A DNA stretch of 64,000 nt, from positions 88,464-152,463 of the forward strand of contig JASEFK010000006.1 of NCBI GenBank assembly GCA_030019255.1. Direction: 5' to 3'. Below, one piece after another: positions 2,700 to 18,999 of the stretch. A model generated the notes under the pieces. It searched no databases. It saw only the letters and a list, made by a program, of their open reading frames with translations, and had not been told where the DNA came from. Made by a program: the position numbers and the translations under genes. Each line of letters opens with the position of its first letter. Position 1 is the first letter of the stretch. Origin of the DNA: Actinomycetota bacterium. Its GTDB lineage: Bacteria; Actinomycetota; Geothermincolia; Geothermincolales; RBG-13-55-18.

Positions 2700-3386
2700 T
2701 CATCCCCTGCGGTCCAGCGCCTCCTGGCCGGCCTTGAGCAGGCGGGCGAGCTCCACGGCCCGGTGCACGGTGGAAACGGCACTGGCTACCCCCCACTGGT
2801 CGCGGAGAACCAGCTTCTTATCACCTTCCGCCCTTTTTCCCGTTCCCTCCAGGGAGGAAAAGGCCGCCCCGCCCTGGAGCCCGATGTCCGGCGAGGCGAT
2901 GACCATGTTCACAGCGTAGAAGAACTGGTGGGCGGTGAGTAAGGCCATCTCCAGCCCCCCCATGCGGAACCAGGCCACGGCCAGGGCACCCCCCACCTTG
3001 TCGCGCAGCTTCCCCGCGGTGAGGTTTCCGTGAACGTATATGCGCATGCGGTCTATGAAAGCCGCTAGGTGCCCCGAAAGCCGGCCGAAATACACTGGCG
3101 TGGCCAATATGAGGACATCACAGGATTCCACCCGAGGATATATCTCCTCCATATCGTCTCCACGTGAGCATCGCCTCCCCTCGGTCTGTTTCCGGAGGCA
3201 CCAGTTGCAATGCACGCAGTCCTCCACCCGGAGGTCCGCGAGGTGCACGATCTCCCAACTCACCCCCGGTTGGCCGTCCTGGCTGCGCAGGGCCTCCTCC
3301 AAGAGTGCGACAACGTTCCCGTCTCTCACCGGGCTTCCGCAAATCCCCAGGATGTTTACCTCGGGAAGGGAATCTGCAGGGCTCAT
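2700..3386 (-). CDS. Iron-sulfur flavoprotein / NADPH-dependent FMN reductase family
   Basis: 228 residues with a flavodoxin-like fold. ILGICGSPVRDGN (residues 12-24) is the FMN-phosphate loop, a compact cysteine motif follows (C57, C60, C63, C73), and ATPVYFGRLSGHLAAFIDR is the second flavin-contact motif. This arrangement is that of the Isf family, which carries FMN plus one [4Fe-4S] cluster and moves electrons between ferredoxin and O2, H2O2 or other acceptors in anaerobes. The start ATG overlaps the stop codon of the upstream sensor-kinase gene (ATGA at 3383-3386), so the two are translationally coupled. A link between the sensor and this redox protein is inferred from the overlap only. 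Confidence 0.85.
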   Translation of the reverse strand: MSPADSLPEVNILGICGSPVRDGNVVALLEEALRSQDGQPGVSWEIVHLADLRVEDCVHCNWCLRKQTEGRRCSRGDDMEEIYPRVESCDVLILATPVYFGRLSGHLAAFIDRMRIYVHGNLTAGKLRDKVGGALAVAWFRMGGLEMALLTAHQFFYAVNMVIASPDIGLQGGAAFSSLEGTGKRAEGDKKLVLRDQWGVASAVSTVHRAVELARLLKAGQEALDRRG

Positions 3387-5785
3387 GAGACCTCGCTGAC
3401 GAAGGGAAGGACGGGTATGCGGATGTAGGCCACAGTACCCTCTCCCGGAGCGGCCTTGAAGGACAGCTCCCCGCCCATGGACCTGACGAACCTGCGGCAG
3501 ACCAGGAGGCTCTTGGCCCTCCGGCCCGTGACCCGGAAGGATTCCTCCTCCGCATCCGCACGGGTGATTTCCCGGATCACCTCTTCCGGCATCCCGGGTC
3601 CCTGGTCTTCAACCCGCAGCAGTATCTCGTCTCCCCATCTCTCCGCCCCCAGGACCACCGGGCTTCCGGGAGGGGAGAACCGGAAGGCGTTGTCCAGGAG
3701 GCACATGAGCGCCTCGCGGAGGAGCCTTTTATCCGCATGCACGCGCGGAAGGTCCTCCTCCACCTCGAGGAAGATCTCCCCGGCCCTGCCGCGCCGCGCA
3801 TAGTAGTCCTTGAGGTCCTTGATCATGCCCCACAGGTCGATGCCACGGGGGGAGAGCACTGCCCTGGGGGCCGTACCTTCACCCGGCGCGGCCAGCAAGT
3901 CCGGCGGGTTCTCGCTTCCCCTGGAAAGGCGGGCTATCCGCAGGTAATCGTGTTCCTTTCCCTCGCCGGAACCACCATGAGCCGGCCCTCCGGATGGCTT
4001 CCGTTCTATGGTGTCGGTCCTGCTTCCGGTATCCACTTCCGAGTCGCGGCCGTAATGCGCGCCTTTATCCCACCCACCCGATCCGGGACCGCCCGACCCA
4101 TCCGACCTCTCCGTTCGCGAGGACATGCGTATGCGCATGGCCCGTACCGCCTCGCCCGCATCTCTTCCCAGGGCCTCGAGTGCTTCCCTTACCGCCTCGT
4201 CCAGCCCCTCAGGCCGAAGGTCCGCGAGGGCTATGGCGCCGACCACCGACCCCTCAGCCCTCAGGGGAATCACCAGCAGGGATCGCCACCGCTTCTCCCC
4301 GAGCAGGTCCGTAAGGATATCCGGCCTCTCCAGCATGGAGGCCATCTCCTCCCATCCCTCCCGGGGAACCCCACCGTGGACGCCCAACCGGAACAGGCCC
4401 TCCTCACGGCACTGGCGCATGTAACCTGGGCGCAGCCCGACCCTTCGACACGATTCCAAGTCTTTTTCCTCAAGGCGGCGAGCCGCCTCGAGGGAGGCAA
4501 AGCCCTCCTCCACGAGGAACGCCGCTCCGGCCTCGTAGTCCACCACGTGCCCCGCGAGCTCCAGGCAGAAATCCAGCAGCCCTTCCCAGTCCGCGCTCCT
4601 TGCCGCCTGTTCCATGATCTTCAGGCTGCGCTCGAGGGATTCCACCCTCTTCCGGAGGGCTTTCACCTCGTCCGCTTTCCCGGTAACCTCCTGTATAAGA
4701 AGGGCGTATTCACGGGTCTTGCCCCTTACCTGGTATGCGGGCCGGGCGATCATCTTCAGTTCTTTACTGGCCCGCTTTATTCTCAGGGTAACCGTCGCCT
4801 CTCGCTCTTCCCCCTCGCTTACGGCACTCTCGGCCAGAGCGCTCACCACATCCCTGACCTCGGCCGGAAAGAGTTCCGCCAAGGTAGCCCCGATGGCCCT
4901 GTCGCGGGAGACGCCCAGCAGCTCCTCCGCCCGGGAGCTTACGAGGGTAACACGGTAGTCGGGCGTGAAGCAGAGCAGCGGCGACTGGGTGCTTTCCAGG
5001 AGGTTCCACAAACGCCGCAGCTCCTCGTTCCTCTCCTTCTTCATCCGGGCCTCGGAAGTAACCTCCCTGCCCAGGCCCAGCATCGCCGCCTCCTCACCTT
5101 CCCCCCATAGGACCACCGTGACCGCCACCACGGAGACGGTCCCATCCGGGCGCTTAAACTCCAGCTCGCCCCTCCAGGGGGTCGCGCGCACCGTTTCCGC
5201 CAGGTATTCCAAGGTCTTCCTGGCCTTCTCGTGGGCCAGGAAAAAGGAAAGCGGCCTTCCCATCACCTCGTTGGCACCGTGCCCGAGCGCCTGGCACATG
5301 GCCGCGTTGGCGTAGATGAACCCGGCCTCGTCGTCCAGCAGAAAAGCGGGGTCCGCGATCCTGTCCAGAAATCCCTTTATCTCCCCGGCGGCTTCCGGGA
5401 CGAGCATGGAGAGCTGCGAGCTCTCCGGGCGGCGCGCCTGCCCCAGGCCCCCAGGAAAGGTCGTGGTGATGCTCACCATGCTGCCCGTGCTTCCCAGCGC
5501 TTCCAGCGGATAGGGAGTGATGGAGACGTTCAGGCGCAGGAGGTGTTTTCCCAGCTTGTAGGCCATGGCGTAATTCTCCACCCCGCGCCCCCGCCTGGTC
5601 TTGGCCAGCAGGTCCTTCAGGGCGGAGTAGAGGATGGGGTTGACCTCCCGGAGGGAGGCCTTGCGCGCTTCCTCCAGGGGCCTTTCGAGGAAGACCTCCG
5701 CGTCGCGGTTTCCCTCCAGAATCCGGTCTTCCCCGTCCAGGAGCAAGGATGCATGGAGGACGCCCCGGTCATCCTTCTCTCTCAT
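3383..5785 (-). CDS. Multi-PAS/GAF sensor protein with HATPase_c domain, no recognisable H-box
   Basis: About 800 residues, soluble (no membrane segment seen). Order: PAS-like region (~1-110), PAS (~140-250), PAS (~260-375), coiled coil (~375-410), GAF (~415-570), a Gly/Ser-rich linker (~575-650) and a C-terminal HATPase_c domain. The ATPase has an N-box (LLDNAFRFSPPG), a G1 box (VEDQGPGMP) and a G2-like end (MGGELSF). I cannot find a HisKA H-box before the ATPase domain; the stretch IDLWGMIKDLKDYYARRG occupies that place without a histidine. Start ATG 5785 is chosen because GGGAGGAGG lies just upstream. It overlaps the iron-sulfur flavoprotein gene by four bases. Signal and output partner are unknown. 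Confidence 0.8.
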   Translation of the reverse strand: MREKDDRGVLHASLLLDGEDRILEGNRDAEVFLERPLEEARKASLREVNPILYSALKDLLAKTRRGRGVENYAMAYKLGKHLLRLNVSITPYPLEALGSTGSMVSITTTFPGGLGQARRPESSQLSMLVPEAAGEIKGFLDRIADPAFLLDDEAGFIYANAAMCQALGHGANEVMGRPLSFFLAHEKARKTLEYLAETVRATPWRGELEFKRPDGTVSVVAVTVVLWGEGEEAAMLGLGREVTSEARMKKERNEELRRLWNLLESTQSPLLCFTPDYRVTLVSSRAEELLGVSRDRAIGATLAELFPAEVRDVVSALAESAVSEGEEREATVTLRIKRASKELKMIARPAYQVRGKTREYALLIQEVTGKADEVKALRKRVESLERSLKIMEQAARSADWEGLLDFCLELAGHVVDYEAGAAFLVEEGFASLEAARRLEEKDLESCRRVGLRPGYMRQCREEGLFRLGVHGGVPREGWEEMASMLERPDILTDLLGEKRWRSLLVIPLRAEGSVVGAIALADLRPEGLDEAVREALEALGRDAGEAVRAMRIRMSSRTERSDGSGGPGSGGWDKGAHYGRDSEVDTGSRTDTIERKPSGGPAHGGSGEGKEHDYLRIARLSRGSENPPDLLAAPGEGTAPRAVLSPRGIDLWGMIKDLKDYYARRGRAGEIFLEVEEDLPRVHADKRLLREALMCLLDNAFRFSPPGSPVVLGAERWGDEILLRVEDQGPGMPEEVIREITRADAEEESFRVTGRRAKSLLVCRRFVRSMGGELSFKAAPGEGTVAYIRIPVLPFVSEVS

Positions 5786-11790: not shown

Positions 11791-12543
11791 ATGGCTGAGG
11801 AAGTCTGGCCGGACGCGCAACCTTTCCGCTTCGAGGGCGGAAAGACGGGGGTGCTGGTGGTGCACGGCTTCACGGGATGCACCCAGAGCATGCGTCCCCT
11901 GGGAGAGGGGCTGGCGGAAGCCGGTTTCACGGTCATCGGTCCCCGGCTGCCCGGGCACGGGACCAGCGTGGAGGACCTGGCCGGGCGTACCTGGGAGGAA
12001 TGGACCGGGGAAGCTGAAAAGGGCCTGCGGGAACTCCTGGACCGCTGCGACAAGGTCTTTATCACCGGGCTCTCCATGGGGGGAACCATCACCTGCTACC
12101 TGGGCGAGAGATATGCCGACCGGGTGGCCGGCCTCCTGCCCATCAACGCCGCGGTGGCTAAACTCAGCCCCCTCATGCCCTTGACCCCGGTATTCAAGTA
12201 CCTGCTGAAGACCATTCCCGGGGTGGGGAGCGACATCAAGGATCCCGAATCCAAGGAATTGTGCTACGACAAGGTACCGGTGCGCGCCGCCGCGGAGCTC
12301 TACGAGCTGATGAAGATAACCCGTCGCGACCTGCCCAGGATAACCGCCCCCATCCTGGTGTTCACCTCCCGGGAGGACCACGTGGTCCCGCCCCCCAACG
12401 GCCCTTATATCCTGGACCACGTGAGCTCGTCGGACAAGGAGCTGGTGTGGCTGGAGAACTCCTACCACGTGGCCACCCTGGATTACGACAAGGATCTCAT
12501 CGTCAAGCGCTGCGTGGAGTTCATCCACCGGCTGGGCGGATAA
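11791..12543 (+). CDS. Alpha/beta-hydrolase, Est30-like carboxylesterase/lipase
   Basis: 250 residues from ATG 11791, which has GGGAGGTGG just upstream (an upstream in-frame start at 11761 is rejected for lack of a site). VLVVHGFTG (21-29) supplies the oxyanion hole, GLSMGG (93-98) carries nucleophile Ser95, SREDHVV places Asp196, and NSYHVATLDYD places His226. LPGHGTS and the helical cap region 125-180 match the Est30/monoglyceride-lipase type of thermophilic carboxylesterases that cut short- to medium-chain esters. No signal peptide, so cytosolic. It follows glycerol kinase in the same orientation after ~330 bases, suggesting but not proving a joint role in glyceride use. Confidence 0.88.
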   Translation: MAEEVWPDAQPFRFEGGKTGVLVVHGFTGCTQSMRPLGEGLAEAGFTVIGPRLPGHGTSVEDLAGRTWEEWTGEAEKGLRELLDRCDKVFITGLSMGGTITCYLGERYADRVAGLLPINAAVAKLSPLMPLTPVFKYLLKTIPGVGSDIKDPESKELCYDKVPVRAAAELYELMKITRRDLPRITAPILVFTSREDHVVPPPNGPYILDHVSSSDKELVWLENSYHVATLDYDKDLIVKRCVEFIHRLGG

Positions 12544-12821: not shown

Positions 12822-13610
12822 TCATCCGCCGCGCAGGGTGCCGCCGAAGACCTGCCAGGCCAGGGCGGACTTGGCCAGAAGGCTCAGGAGGATATACACC
12901 TTCTCCCCGAAGAGGTAGTCCCGCCACTTCCCCACCTTCCGGTACTGCAGGACCATGTTCAGGGCGAAGATGTTGAAGAAGACGAAGAGGATGGGGAGGA
13001 TGAAGTAGACGAAGGTGGGCACGTCGGCCTCCGGGTTGGCGACGGCGGAAAAGAAGTACAGGGCGATGACCACCCAGGGGATGATCCCCGCCAGGCAGCC
13101 GAACCAGAAGGCGGTCCACCTCGTCTTCTCCCTGCCCTGGTTGTCCAGCTCCATCATCCACCCGAAGAGGATCATCATGGCGTTGAGGAAGAAGAGCAGG
13201 AGGAGGGTGCTCAGGTCGTAGACCCCGGAGAGCATGGCGATGACCACGATCATCAGGGAGGCGCTGAAGGAATATTCTATCCAGCGGGCGTGGTTGATGC
13301 CCTTCCTCAGGTTCCCCGCGTACCACTCGTATATCCCGGGAAGGGTGAGGAGGAAGTGGGCCAGGGCGCTCATGAAGAGGAAGGCGGCCACCATGGGCCC
13401 GATCCTCAGGTGGCCCACCACCTCGGGCATGCTGGGCTGGGCGAACTGCGTCGGGTCCGCCTTCAGGTAGTTGGTGGTTACGGGAAGGGAGAAGTCGTTG
13501 CTCAGGGCCACCATGAGCAGGCCCTGCAGGAAATGGAGGGCAGCCATCACCCCATTGTACAGCCGCAAGCGGCGATAGACCTTTTCCCCATCCCTCGACG
13601 CCTCTTCCAT
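12822..13610 (-). CDS. Heliorhodopsin
   Basis: 262 residues with seven predicted membrane helices and the diagnostic heliorhodopsin motifs. RWIEYSFSASLM in helix 3 carries the counterion glutamate (E112 here), and LLAKSALAWQVFGGTL in helix 7 carries the retinal-binding lysine (K247). The RKVGKWRDYLFGEKVY loop before helix 7 is also family-typical. Heliorhodopsins bind retinal, show a long photocycle, do not act as ordinary proton pumps and insert with the N-terminus inside; their signalling partner is unresolved. ATG 13610 is preferred over GTG 13613 because TAGGAGGA lies upstream at good spacing. No retinal-synthesis gene (carotenoid oxygenase, crtY) lies in the window. It is convergent with the esterase and downstream of an XRE-cupin regulator on the same strand. 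Confidence 0.93.
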   Translation of the reverse strand: MEEASRDGEKVYRRLRLYNGVMAALHFLQGLLMVALSNDFSLPVTTNYLKADPTQFAQPSMPEVVGHLRIGPMVAAFLFMSALAHFLLTLPGIYEWYAGNLRKGINHARWIEYSFSASLMIVVIAMLSGVYDLSTLLLLFFLNAMMILFGWMMELDNQGREKTRWTAFWFGCLAGIIPWVVIALYFFSAVANPEADVPTFVYFILPILFVFFNIFALNMVLQYRKVGKWRDYLFGEKVYILLSLLAKSALAWQVFGGTLRGG

Positions 13611-13834: not shown

Positions 13835-14371
13835 TCACACGCTGGGTGGGGTGATGACCATGAGGAGAACGCCCTCTTCGTCGGAGAGGTTTTCCCAGGC
13901 GTGAGGCTCCTCTCCTCGGAAGTAAACGCAGTCCCCTTCCCTTAAGTGGTGGGCCTCCCTGCCCAGCTCGAAACGGAATTCGCCCTTCAGGGCCATGGCG
14001 AACTCCTCCCCACCATGCTTGATGGGATCGCGGTACCTGGCATGGGGTTGAAAGGTGCCCAGGAGTGTTTCCATCTGGGCCTCGGGGTCGTCAACCAGGA
14101 GTTCCAGGCTCACGTCCTCCGGACTGTCTATCTTGCGCCGGTCCTCACGCCGGTAGGTTATCTTGCGAACCGCCTGGCCAGAAAAAAGTTCCGCGAGGGT
14201 CACACCGTAAGAATTCAGAAGCTTGATGAGGTTCTTGATGGTGATGCTCGTCTTTCCGGTCTCCAGCTTACTCAGGAAGGATACCGAGAATCCCGTTAAC
14301 TCCGCGACCTGGCGTATGGAGAGTTTTCTGCTCCTCCTGAGGTCCCGCAGCTTGCCACCTATATCATCCAC
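13835..14371 (-). CDS. XRE-family HTH regulator with C-terminal cupin domain
   Basis: 178 residues. The N-terminal HTH_3 domain (residues ~5-60: LRDLRRSRKLSIRQVAELTG, SVSFLSKLETGKT) is followed by a cupin_2 domain (~100-178: RDPIKHGGEEFAMALKGEF, GDCVYFRGEEPHAW). This MerR-like pairing of DNA-binding and small-molecule cupin domains is common in regulators of amino-acid, polyamine or redox genes. The ligand is unknown. The region upstream of it is markedly AT-rich. It is transcribed toward the heliorhodopsin gene 220 bases downstream, which makes it a candidate regulator of that gene (inference from position only). Confidence 0.88.
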   Translation of the reverse strand: MDDIGGKLRDLRRSRKLSIRQVAELTGFSVSFLSKLETGKTSITIKNLIKLLNSYGVTLAELFSGQAVRKITYRREDRRKIDSPEDVSLELLVDDPEAQMETLLGTFQPHARYRDPIKHGGEEFAMALKGEFRFELGREAHHLREGDCVYFRGEEPHAWENLSDEEGVLLMVITPPSV

Positions 14372-14669: not shown

Positions 14670-14819
14670 TCAGGCCGCCGCGAGGGGAAGGCCCAAAAAA
14701 ATGCGCTCCACCTCCTCATCATTAAGATAGGGAAACTCGATGGTGGTCGCTTCCCGGCGTTCCTCCTCGAAAGGAAGGCCAAGATACCAGCATTCGATTT
14801 CGTGCTCCGTGTACATCAT
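14670..14819 (-). CDS. Orphan small acidic protein (49 aa) with its own promoter
   Basis: ATG 14819 (ATGATG) to TGA 14672-14670 gives a 49-residue protein with coherent composition: EIECWYLGLPFEEERREATT followed by a stretch ending DEEVERIFLGLPLAAA. It contains a repeated LGLP element. A near-consensus promoter lies 37 bases upstream on the same strand (14856-14884). Ribosome binding is weak (CGGTGGTG). I do not recognise a family; antitoxin-like or regulatory small proteins are possible. Confidence rests on the promoter plus protein-like sequence. Confidence 0.5.
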   Translation of the reverse strand: MMYTEHEIECWYLGLPFEEERREATTIEFPYLNDEEVERIFLGLPLAAA

Positions 14820-14855
14820 CACCACCGTTTCTCTATAGAGTAACATTACAAATTT

Positions 14856-15591: not shown

Positions 15592-16548
15592 CTACATGGT
15601 GAACACACCATCCCTATCCTTGCACTCCTCCATCCACTGGCTAAGGAACTCCATGGGGGTGAGATAGCTCAGGCTCTGGTGGGGCCTCACGTAATTGTAG
15701 ACGTAGTTCCATTCCTCCAGGATCTCGTTCAACTCCTCCACCGTATATCCCTCACGGAAGGCCCACAGCTCGTACTTGGTGGTCTGGATCTTTCTCTCCA
15801 CGAAGGCATTGTCCTTGGGGCAGTAGGGGTGGGAGAAGTAGTGGGTGATGAGCCCCTCCTCCGTGGCGCGGTCGAAGTGGCGGAGGAACTCCGATCCGCC
15901 TTCCGTCTTGAGGGCGAGGACGGAAAACGGCATACAAGCCTTCACCTCCTCTAAGAAGGCCCGGGCGCAGGCGGAGCTTGCGGAGGAGTACACCCGGCTG
16001 AAGGCCACCCGGGAGAAGCAGTCTATGGCTGTGAACGGGTAGAACTTCTTGCCCAAGAAGCGCAGGTTCCTGGGCTCTATCTGGATGAGTCACCCTGGGA
16101 AGGCCCTCTTCATCCAGCGCTCCGCCAGCAGGCCCCTTTTCCTCCTTTCTCCCGCCCGGCTCTTCCTTCTTTGCACCCTCCGGTCATAGAGTCCCTTTCT
16201 TCTCATGATCCTTCCCACGCTGGAGGAGGAGATCTCTATGCCGTGGTCCCTTTTTAGGATGACGGCGATCTTATGTTTCGACCAGGCCGGATGCTCCCTC
16301 CTTAAGTCGCAGATGAGCTCCACCGTCTGCCAGGGTATCCTGGATACCCTCCTCCTTTTGGGGGTGCGGGGGAGGTCCTCCAGGCCCCGGGGGCCCTTCT
16401 TGAGGTACCTCTTCACCCACTTATACAGGGTGCTTCTGGATATCCCGAACCTGCGGCAGGTGACGGAGGCGTTCTTGTGCTTCTTGTAATGTCCCACCCA
16501 GTAAAGCCTCACCTTGGCCTCCCTGGATAGATCCGCCACCTTGGCCAT
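15592..16548 (-). pseudogene. IS481-like (DDE integrase-core) transposase, degenerate
   Basis: Reading from ATG 16548, the N-terminal helix-turn-helix (RRFGISRSTLYKWVKRY) and HTH/linker (SVGRIMRRKGLYDRR) lead to AFPG, then an in-frame TGA at 16092-16090. The same frame continues as LIQIEPRNLRFLGKKFYPFT and the rve integrase core to TAG 15592. Besides the stop, two of the three catalytic positions look altered. The usual QIDT reads QIEP and the usual TDNGSEF reads TEGGSEF, while the final glutamate region (NAFVERKIQTT) remains. The element is therefore almost certainly inactive. A short copy of its 3' end recurs at 40115-40180. Confidence 0.85.
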
Positions 16549-16858
16549 CCTGAGTATTTTCCCCTGGTGCGGGAGCCTCGTATGATAGATAATGGTACTG
16601 GTTCCTACTGAACCTTTCCTGGACACCTTGTATAGAAAAAGTCGCCCCTTGCGGGCGGCTTTCCCGTTTAGAATGACAATCAAAGTGTCGGGGGAGGCCT
16701 CGGAGGTTCCTTGGGGCGAAGGCCCTTGGAAGGAGACTGGTCCTCCGGACCCCGTGACCGATTCCTGATAGACTTCCTGGGGCTTTAGACCTCTGATCAT
16801 TGCGCAAGGCTGGAGTCGCGGGCTCCCGGAGGCCTCCCGACAGAGGAAAGGAGGCGAT
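16549..16858. other. Spacer between two decayed insertion sequences
   Basis: About 310 bases. A hairpin with flanking A/T runs (16636-16663; GTCGCCCC with GGGCGGC, then TTT on one strand and CTTTTT on the other) looks like a bidirectional terminator. No gene recognised. The open frame on the minus strand that runs through here into the IS481-like gene does not look like protein. Confidence 0.45.
16636..16663 (-). terminator. Possible terminator hairpin upstream of IS481-like gene
   Basis: On the minus strand GCCGCCC pairs with GGGCGAC (one mismatch) and is followed by CTTTTT. It may shield the transposase from outside transcription. Confidence 0.4.
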
Positions 16859-18235
16859 GTGGAGAAGATCTTTTTCGGACTGGATGTGGGAGGAAGATTC
16901 CATAGAATATGCTTCCTCGACGAGAACAAGAACCCCCTGGGAAGGGAACTCACCATTCCCGATGACCTAGAGGGCTTCGAGGCCCTCAAGGAGGAGATGG
17001 AAAACTGAGAAAGAGGTATCCGGAGGCTATCTTTCATGGGGGAGCGGAGGAGGGCGGGATCTATTGGCGCAACATCTTCTCCTTCTTCCGAAGGACCATG
17101 CCCTGGGCGAAGCTCTCCCTCCTTAATCCCCTGCAGACGAGGCGCTTCAAGGAACTGGAGCTCCACCGGGTGAAGACCGACGCAGAAGATGCCCGGACCA
17201 TAGCCCGCTTCGTGGCCACCTTTGAGCCCGAGCCAGCGCCGGATCTTCCCTCCGAGTACCTCGACCTCTGCGAGCTCTGCCGCTTCCGAAAGCTCAAGGC
17301 TTCCGAGCACGCCCGCTACCTTAACCACCTGCACAAGTACCTGAAACAGGCCTTCCCTTAAGCTCTGTGGGAAGGTCAAGAGGGGCTCAGGCCTCAGGTA
17401 TCTGGCCCTGCTCATGCACTTCCCCACCGCTTGCGAAGTGCGCCGGGCGGAAGTATCCGAGATCGCATCCCTCACCTTCGGGAAGAGGAACTTCCGGCTG
17501 GGAGAGAAGTTCGCCCATGAGGTGAAAGATCTGGCTGCCCGCTCCTGCGCCTCACAGCATGGACCGGGCATGGGGTTCGCCCTGCGCTCCATTCAGGCCA
17601 ACCTCCTCCGCATAAGGGAAGACTCTCTTTGATCGAGGAGAAGATCTCCGAGCTCTACCAAGCCTTCCCCGCCACCCCTCTCTTCACTGTCCCCGGGATA
17701 AGTCCCCTGCAGGCGGCGGTGATGGAGGCGGAGACAGGAAGCGTGGGACGCTTCCCCTCCGCCAAGCATCTGGTGGGGGAGGTAGGGGGCCTACCCGGAG
17801 CTCCGGGAATCCGGGGAGTCCAGGCTCGCAAAACCCCGCATGACCAGGAAGGGCAACCGCTACCTGAACCAGGCGGTCTACCTCTCGGTGCTCGCGGCCA
17901 TCTCCCCCCGCTCACCGGATAACGCCATCAAGCATTTCTACTGTTCCAAGGTGGCGAAGGGGAAGGACCGTATGGTGGCCCTGGGACCTTCCATGCGCAA
18001 GCTGACCCACATCATCTACGGGGTGCTCATGAGCGGCAAGCGCTACGACCCCGCCTACGAGTACCCGGAGGAGGGGTTCGAGATACGCTTCGTGGACCGG
18101 GAGAAGGGCTGTTTGGTTGCGGAGAAGGACCTCTCCTCCCTGAAGAAGGTTATGCCCATCCGTTACAAGAGGGCCACCGCCCCAAGGCCTCGCCAGGCCG
18201 CTGCAAGAGGTCGAGTGGCCCTTAACCAACAATAG
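16859..18235 (+). pseudogene. IS110-family (DEDD) transposase, multiply frameshifted
   Basis: A GTG at 16859 behind AAAGGAGG starts EKIFFGLDVGGRFHRICFLD, the IS110 N-terminus with the first catalytic Asp. The frame then stops at 17006. Pieces in other frames continue the protein: GIYWRNIFSFFRR, VKTDAEDARTIARFVATFEP (catalytic DxxD), a central helical part, VPGISPLQAAVMEAETGSVG (Transposase_20 helix-hairpin-helix) and TRKGNRYLNQAVYLSVLAA, to a TAG at 18235. At least four frame changes are needed, so it is a pseudogene. It lies back-to-back with the IS481-like pseudogene. Confidence 0.85.
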
Positions 18236-18753: not shown

Positions 18754-18999
18754 ATGGAACATCATAATTGTTACGTCGTGCTGTTCGATTCCACCCACCA
18801 GGCCCTGAGGGCCGAGGCGGTCCTCAAGGAAGCTGGGATCCCGCATGCGGTCATCAACACCCCCAGGGAATTCAGCGTGGACTGCGGGATCTCCCTGCGT
18901 ATAGATACCGCTTCCGAAAAGGCAGCCGGGAGAGCCCTTCGGGAAGCCGGGGTGGTCTTCACGGGCATCGTCCCCTACACGATGCGGAAACGGAAATAG
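18754..18999 (+). CDS. DUF3343 family protein (putative Se/S carrier-like)
   Basis: 81 residues. YVVLFDSTHQALRAEAVLKE at the N-terminus, VDCGISLRID in the middle and GIVPYTMRK at the end fit DUF3343, a short protein often found beside selenium/sulfur-transfer genes and beside double-cubane reductases. It keeps one conserved Cys (in DCGISL). The ATG lacks a Shine-Dalgarno site; an AT-rich TATGAT box 16 bases upstream suggests a nearly leaderless transcript. It is followed after 78 bases by the 2-hydroxyacyl-CoA dehydratase-type reductase and its activator, so the three probably work together. Confidence 0.82.
   Translation: MEHHNCYVVLFDSTHQALRAEAVLKEAGIPHAVINTPREFSVDCGISLRIDTASEKAAGRALREAGVVFTGIVPYTMRKRK

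What the first reader, a model, noticed from the sequence alone, without database searches (positions are those of the whole stretch)
12822..13610. Heliorhodopsin in an apparently anaerobic genome
The helix-3 motif RWIEYS and the helix-7 motif LLAKSALAWQVFGGTL identify a heliorhodopsin with counterion E112 and retinal lysine K247. The surrounding genes (AOR, double-cubane reductase, ferredoxins, rubrerythrin) speak for anaerobic life, where retinal synthesis by an O2-dependent carotenoid oxygenase is a problem. An XRE-cupin regulator lies directly upstream on the same strand and could be its regulator or output.
Basis: partly seen in the sequence, partly recalled or inferred. Interest (0 to 1): 0.75.

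Follow-up and report, generated by a model that had tools for sequence, protein, structure and literature searches.

The report
Heliorhodopsin in a retinal-less anaerobe lineage
This is a genuine light-sensing heliorhodopsin gene in an oxygen-avoiding bacterium that shows no known way of making its retinal pigment, a situation already described for other heliorhodopsins; the less expected part is that close relatives have repeatedly lost two histidines thought to catch the protein's proton.

Summary
Window 12822-13610 (minus) encodes a full-length heliorhodopsin (PF18761 340 bits, NF038020 346 bits) with counterion E112 and retinal lysine K247. The genome groups with Candidatus Solincola (class Geothermincolia). 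A heliorhodopsin clears the cut-off in 23 of 31 genomes of the class, under purifying selection (dN/dS 0.09-0.17). None of the 31 has phytoene/squalene synthase, Blh or RPE65-type oxygenase, cytochrome bd, or heme-copper oxidase above cut-off. Most likely it is a sensory opsin loaded with retinal from neighbours. That is not new: heliorhodopsins of strict anaerobes, and uptake of external retinal, are published. The XRE-cupin gene is adjacent in 10 of 14 loci of the own family but in none of 10 outside it, so it is no general partner. An unexpected by-product: both proton-accepting histidines (48C12 H23, H80) are leucine in 10 of 22 class members. This double change arose at least twice in the class and once elsewhere, and S111T occurs only with it (9 of 12 against 0 of 128). 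The window's own protein keeps both histidines.

The parts
12822..13610 (-). heliorhodopsin gene, 262 aa, seven helices, N terminus inside
   Evidence: PF18761 340 bits, NF038020 346 bits, AlphaFold model pLDDT 87, Foldseek to 6is6 TM 0.86/0.90
12870..12872 (-). codon of the retinal-binding lysine K247 (48C12 K241)
   Evidence: sequence; invariant in 22 of 22 class and 39 of 39 other heliorhodopsins aligned
13275..13277 (-). codon of the counterion glutamate E112 (48C12 E107)
   Evidence: sequence; invariant in 22 of 22 class and 39 of 39 others
13356..13358 (-). codon of H85 (48C12 H80), proton-accepting group; leucine in 10 of 22 class members
13533..13535 (-). codon of H26 (48C12 H23), proton-accepting group; leucine in the same 10 class members
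13835..14371 (-). XRE-family regulator with cupin domain, adjacent upstream; role in heliorhodopsin function unproven
   Evidence: HTH_3 and Cupin_2; adjacent in 10 of 14 loci of family f1, none of 10 loci elsewhere in the class
11791..12543 (+). alpha/beta hydrolase, convergent neighbour, syntenic in family f1
   Evidence: Hydrolase_4
3383..5785 (-). PAS-GAF histidine kinase about 7 kb from the heliorhodopsin gene, candidate downstream partner only by analogy
   Evidence: syntenic in family f1

Best explanation
A functional type-3 (helio-) rhodopsin that acts as a light sensor, not a pump. The cell does not make retinal; the opsin in the membrane picks up all-trans retinal released by other organisms around it, probably through the membrane opening known from solved heliorhodopsins, and forms the Schiff base on K247 with E112 as counterion. 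Green light (predicted absorption maximum about 530-540 nm from the M153/M219/A246 colour triplet) isomerises the retinal, the Schiff-base proton passes to E112 and the H26/H85 water network and back, and the slow conformational change alters a cytoplasmic partner. The partner is unknown. Shown here: identity, residues, predicted fold, inverted topology by charge, purifying selection, lack of the tested retinal and carotenoid genes. Inferred: retinal uptake, photocycle, signalling.
For: Family and fold. All 15 checked residues of the published 48C12 Schiff-base and hydrogen-bond network are identical in the window protein (residue list from PMC9726877). Retinal Lys, counterion Glu and TM7 Ser invariant in 22 of 22 class members. 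dN/dS 0.09-0.17 in nine class pairs, against neutral decay. 23 of 31 class genomes carry it over the cut-off; in G016 it has decayed visibly (three reading frames, middle part missing, Glu at the lysine position). No Blh, PSY/SQS or RPE65 in any of 31 genomes, with positive controls ringing. Positive-inside count 12 Lys+Arg in the N-terminal-side loops against 2 in the others = N-in, C-out. DNA photolyase in 11 of 23 heliorhodopsin-positive genomes (G000 included) and 0 of 8 without (Fisher one-sided p 0.016), which suggests that these cells meet light. Precedent: heliorhodopsins below 540 nm with the Met/Met pair, among them those of Mesotoga and Dehalogenimonas (539 nm each), were purified with retinal (PMC7807009).
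Against: No direct evidence that the protein holds retinal in vivo, nor any conserved partner gene across the class. HMM absence does not exclude an unrelated retinal route. The photolyase association is small and not corrected for kinship. 17 of 29 heliorhodopsin genomes outside the class also lack phytoene synthase, so the lack is not special to this class, and many of those are MAGs of unknown completeness.
Confidence: 0.7

Rival explanations
1. The organism makes its own retinal or another retinoid by an unrecognised, oxygen-independent route.
For: Lysine, counterion and pocket are conserved in 22 of 22 class members although 0 of 31 genomes have the tested enzymes; conserved need without a known supplier. 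FAD oxidoreductases of the CrtI-like and geranylgeranyl-reductase-like superfamilies lie near the gene in some members (G002).
Against: Without phytoene/squalene synthase there is no known C40 precursor; the CrtI-like protein of G002 scores 90 bits against a cut-off of 238. Retinal uptake is an established simpler alternative (PMC9296517, PMC9385722).
Confidence: 0.07
2. The XRE-cupin protein is the dedicated regulator or signalling output of the heliorhodopsin.
For: Same strand, directly upstream, kept in 10 of 14 loci of family f1 at 71-85% identity.
Against: Gap varies from 72 to 1027 bp; absent beside the gene in 4 of 14 f1 loci and in all 10 loci of other families; other neighbours are as well conserved; no shared short dyad in front of the two genes. 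Its best full-length NCBIfam kin is PuuR-like, far below cut-off.
Confidence: 0.15
3. The opsin works without retinal (as a scaffold or binding another ligand).
For: No tested supplier of retinal in any class genome; two histidines of the photochemical network are lost in relatives.
Against: The retinal lysine, counterion and SxxxK serine never vary among the 22 full-length class copies; the one class copy with a changed lysine is a decayed gene.
Confidence: 0.1
4. The gene is a relic or a binning contaminant of an anaerobic MAG.
For: Draft genome in 43 contigs.
Against: Same locus and flanking genes in the named genus relatives; 23 of 31 class genomes; dN/dS 0.09-0.17.
Confidence: 0.02

Closest known systems
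TaHeR, Thermoplasmatales archaeon SG8-52-1 heliorhodopsin (PDB 6is6, 7u55)
   Same: Closest solved relative: phmmer E 1.8e-76, TM 0.86/0.90 at 50% identity; PMC9385722 (passages) says its host lacks a means of making retinal and that the fenestration could bind external retinal.
   Different: Archaeal; the window protein is bacterial and its opening was not examined in atomic detail here.
48C12 heliorhodopsin (PDB 6su3, 6uh3)
   Same: All 15 checked network residues identical, H23/H80/E107/K241 included.
   Different: 48C12 has Gln148/Gln213 (PMC7807009); the window has Met/Met, as in the blue-shifted group.
Heliorhodopsins of strict anaerobes (MORN-HeR of Syntrophomonadaceae, Dictyoglomus; PMC8612252; Mesotoga, Thermococcus, Dehalogenimonas; PMC7807009)
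   Same: Heliorhodopsin in oxygen-avoiding hosts; several shown to bind added retinal.
   Different: No MORN or zinc-finger extension in the window protein; different lineage.
Saccharibacteria type-1 rhodopsins (PMC9296517)
   Same: Rhodopsin without retinal synthesis, proposed to be loaded with retinal from other organisms.
   Different: Type-1 outward proton pump, not a heliorhodopsin.

Membership tests
Heliorhodopsin (type-3 rhodopsin) | Match to curated family models | tested here: met
   PF18761 340.4 vs 26.7 bits; NF038020 346 vs 100 bits
Heliorhodopsin (type-3 rhodopsin) | Retinal lysine in TM7 with SxxxK | tested here: met
   S243-x3-K247
Heliorhodopsin (type-3 rhodopsin) | Glu counterion in TM3 | tested here: met
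   E112
Heliorhodopsin (type-3 rhodopsin) | Seven helices and long A-B loop with two antiparallel strands | tested here: met
   Model: helices plus strands 41-46 and 63-69; Foldseek best ten hits are all heliorhodopsins
Heliorhodopsin (type-3 rhodopsin) | Inverted topology, N terminus inside | tested here: met
   Lys+Arg 12 in N-side loops against 2 in the others, helix boundaries set by hand from the model; a prediction, not a measurement
Heliorhodopsin (type-3 rhodopsin) | Proton-accepting histidine pair H23/H80 | tested here: met
   H26 and H85 present in the window; both Leu in 10 of 22 class relatives
Heliorhodopsin (type-3 rhodopsin) | Binds retinal, visible absorption, slow photocycle, no pumping | not testable with these tools
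   needs expressed protein
Type-1 microbial rhodopsin (PF01036) | Match to the family model | tested here: not met
   no Pfam family other than PF18761 at E <= 0.001
Znf-HeR / MORN-HeR fusions (PMC8612252) | N-terminal zinc ribbon or MORN repeats | tested here: not met
   only about 12 residues before TM1, no other Pfam domain

The most novel reading that the evidence does not exclude
Within this anaerobic class and in one other actinobacterial family, heliorhodopsins have repeatedly evolved into a natural histidine-less form: H23 and H80 both become Leu, often with S111T and, in the class, A77G around the counterion, while retinal lysine, counterion and purifying selection are kept. These would be working photoreceptors whose photocycle runs without the canonical proton-accepting group, with a different signalling output; the window's protein is the two-histidine state from which they came.
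Probability: 0.5. Interest if true: 0.6.

Novelty: new member of a known kind. Interest (0 to 1): 0.42.

Why it matters
The gene itself adds an oxygen-avoiding actinobacterial class to the hosts of heliorhodopsins and gives a clean genomic case (31 genomes, no tested retinal or carotenoid gene, opsin kept by selection) for dependence on foreign retinal. The histidine-less relatives would let the role of the proton-accepting group be tested on natural proteins: related genera, with the gene at the same genomic spot, differ in exactly this feature.

Tried and rejected
XRE-cupin as a class-wide partner: rejected. A conserved operator (6+6 dyad, gap 0-8) before heliorhodopsin or XRE genes: none shared. 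Carotenoid genes near the gene in relatives: the CrtI-like protein of G002 is far under the family cut-off. Contamination: rejected by synteny. A single origin of the Leu/Leu form: rejected by AU test, p 0.004, with the caveat that the group was named after seeing the residues and that only four columns of the trait were left out of that tree; six were left out of the larger, quicker tree. Viral heliorhodopsins: one scan gave 3 loci; two entered the alignment, neither Leu/Leu. Wood-Ljungdahl marker CdhC: strong in 27 of 31 class genomes, but G000 itself shows only a 50-bit short match, so acetogenesis is not claimed for this genome. Rows dropped: 6 of 67 loci (L044, L048, L050, L053, G010, G016) were too short or broken, 2 of 82 (L141, L146) were dropped because the automatic reading frame held a stop; of the phylum matches the short or fragmentary ones and one with a stop inside (G411) were not fetched; L047 was left out of the first tree. 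The sets from genome contigs and the genome search overlap partly, so one search counts distinct sequences only. Papers: PMC8612252, PMC7110647, PMC9726877, PMC7807009, PMC9385722, PMC9296517, PMC9769723, PMC10238734, PMC9875498, PMC5459899, PMC9601134, PMC11109279, PMC10746217 by found passages; PMC9448325 searched for histidine terms without a hit; PMC6951262 first part of the text.

Full report
What is there. Window 12822-13610 on the minus strand is an open frame of 262 codons from ATG. It matches the Pfam heliorhodopsin family over its whole length with 340 bits (cut-off 26.7) and NCBI's heliorhodopsin equivalog with 346 bits (cut-off 100). The six PDB sequences that match are all heliorhodopsins, TaHeR 6is6 first (E 1.8e-76). 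The AlphaFold model (mean pLDDT 87) matches heliorhodopsin structures in its ten best Foldseek hits (TM 0.86/0.90 to 6is6, 50% identity); other microbial rhodopsins follow far behind. Fifteen residues of the 48C12 Schiff-base and hydrogen-bond network named in PMC9726877 are all identical here. The charge distribution over the loops (12 against 2 Lys+Arg) gives the inverted topology of heliorhodopsins.

Whose genome. The nearest named relatives by this protein are an Actinomycetota MAG (89%) and Candidatus Solincola quzhuomuensis (87%), then S. sediminis and S. daggyaiensis (69-72%); NCBI places the genus in class Geothermincolia. The genome has 2.93 Mb in 43 contigs, 98.8% complete.

Anaerobic life and retinal. 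The window holds a double-cubane anaerobic reductase with activase, an aldehyde:ferredoxin oxidoreductase, ferredoxins and rubrerythrin. Over 31 genomes of the class, cytochrome bd is found in 0 and heme-copper oxidase above cut-off in 0 (one sub-cut-off match in G012). Phytoene/squalene synthase is found in 0 of 31, Blh in 0 of 31, RPE65-type oxygenase in 0 of 31. The same searches did ring in control genomes or, for Blh, in one other heliorhodopsin genome (G035), so the negatives carry weight; 19 of the 31 are at least 90% complete with at most 5% contamination. Yet heliorhodopsin is over the cut-off in 23 of 31 (24 with weak fragments), at dN/dS 0.09-0.17 in nine pairs, with the retinal lysine, counterion and TM7 serine in 22 of 22 full-length copies. 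In G016 it has decayed into three frames, with the middle missing and Glu at the lysine position. The lack of phytoene synthase is not peculiar to the class: 17 of 29 heliorhodopsin genomes of other groups lack it too (1 of 5; 16 of 24 outside the class).

How it most likely works. A retinal-scavenging light sensor. The literature already supports this: PMC9385722 (passages) reports the membrane opening near the ionone ring and the proposal that TaHeR, whose host cannot make retinal, takes it up from outside; PMC9296517 (passages) says that heliorhodopsin binds added retinal fast and is used by microbes without the pathway; PMC7807009 (passages) measured 13 heliorhodopsins, among them those of Thermococcus, Mesotoga and Dehalogenimonas, with the Met/Met group below 540 nm. 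The window protein has the Met/Met/Ala colour triplet of that group, hence the prediction of about 530-540 nm. PMC8612252 (passages) describes heliorhodopsins in strictly anaerobic Firmicutes and in Dictyoglomota, and PMC7110647 (passages) in Bathyarchaeota without a full retinal route.

Partner. The XRE-cupin gene sits next to heliorhodopsin in 10 of 14 loci of the own family (f1), but not in G018, G019, G020 or G024, nor in any of 10 loci of families f2-f5, one of which (G010) is cut by a contig end. The whole block is syntenic in f1, so adjacency says little. Photolyase occurs in 11 of 23 genomes with heliorhodopsin and 0 of 8 without (one-sided p 0.016, not corrected for kinship); it lies on another contig in G000. 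PMC9769723 (passages) reports a heliorhodopsin that binds and boosts photolyase in Trichococcus, so photolyase is one candidate; the syntenic PAS-GAF kinase is another. Neither is shown.

The unexpected part. The two histidines that serve as the proton-accepting group in 48C12 (H23, H80; PMC9726877, PMC10238734) are both Leu in 10 of 22 class heliorhodopsins, and both His in the other 12 and in 39 of 39 first-round relatives from other groups. In a second sample drawn from 396 genomes of the phylum plus viral contigs (80 of 82 loci usable) 77 are His/His, two Leu/Leu (family f32) and one Leu/His. On a tree without the main trait columns the class copies fall into two separate clades (f4 with f2g8; f1g4 with f1g6), a single clade being rejected with p 0.004; a 140-row quick tree needs three changes for H80 and five for H23. 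Among 140 distinct sequences S111T occurs in 9 of 12 Leu/Leu copies and in none of the 128 others, and A77G in 8 of 12 against 1 of 128. In 48C12, S111 and S76, the neighbour of A77, bond to the counterion. Leu/Leu pairs are under the same constraint (0.09-0.17), and in f1 both forms sit at the same genomic spot. So the pair behaves as a unit that can be dropped. I found no mention of natural histidine-less heliorhodopsins in my searches or in the passages read; most subscription papers are not held. According to PMC9726877 the M state still forms in the H23F/H82F mutant of TaHeR, so photoactivity of the natural forms is plausible.

Verdict. The gene is a new member of a known kind; the histidine-less relatives are the part a specialist would want to test.

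Noticed in passing
L005, L006, L007, L026 and unnamed class genomes G002-G005, G015, G021, G022, G028-G030: Heliorhodopsins with both proton-accepting histidines replaced by Leu, two origins in the class, a third in family f32 (L149, L151).
   Followed up: yes
L114 1908-2292 (G016): Decayed heliorhodopsin in three frames with Glu at the retinal lysine position.
   Followed up: partly
L010, L012 genomes (Cryosericum and a Caldiserica MAG): RPE65-type carotenoid oxygenase present without phytoene synthase and without heme-copper oxidase: another possible case of retinal made from imported carotenoid.
   Followed up: no
window about 15592-18235: Transposase genes (rve-type, IS110-type pieces) between the XRE-cupin gene and the Se/S carrier-like gene; the relatives compared lack genes of these clusters.
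   Followed up: partly
window 14670-14846, minus strand: Small ORF (50-64 aa in relatives) with repeated YLGLPF-like motifs, kept near the XRE-cupin gene in 9 loci, no Pfam match.
   Followed up: no
window 18754-18999: Putative Se/S carrier protein (PF11823) next to the double-cubane reductase, conserved in the family.
   Followed up: no
G000 C7:135704-136111: Only a short 50-bit CdhC-like match in the window's genome, whereas 27 of 31 class genomes have a full acetyl-CoA synthase-type match.
   Followed up: no
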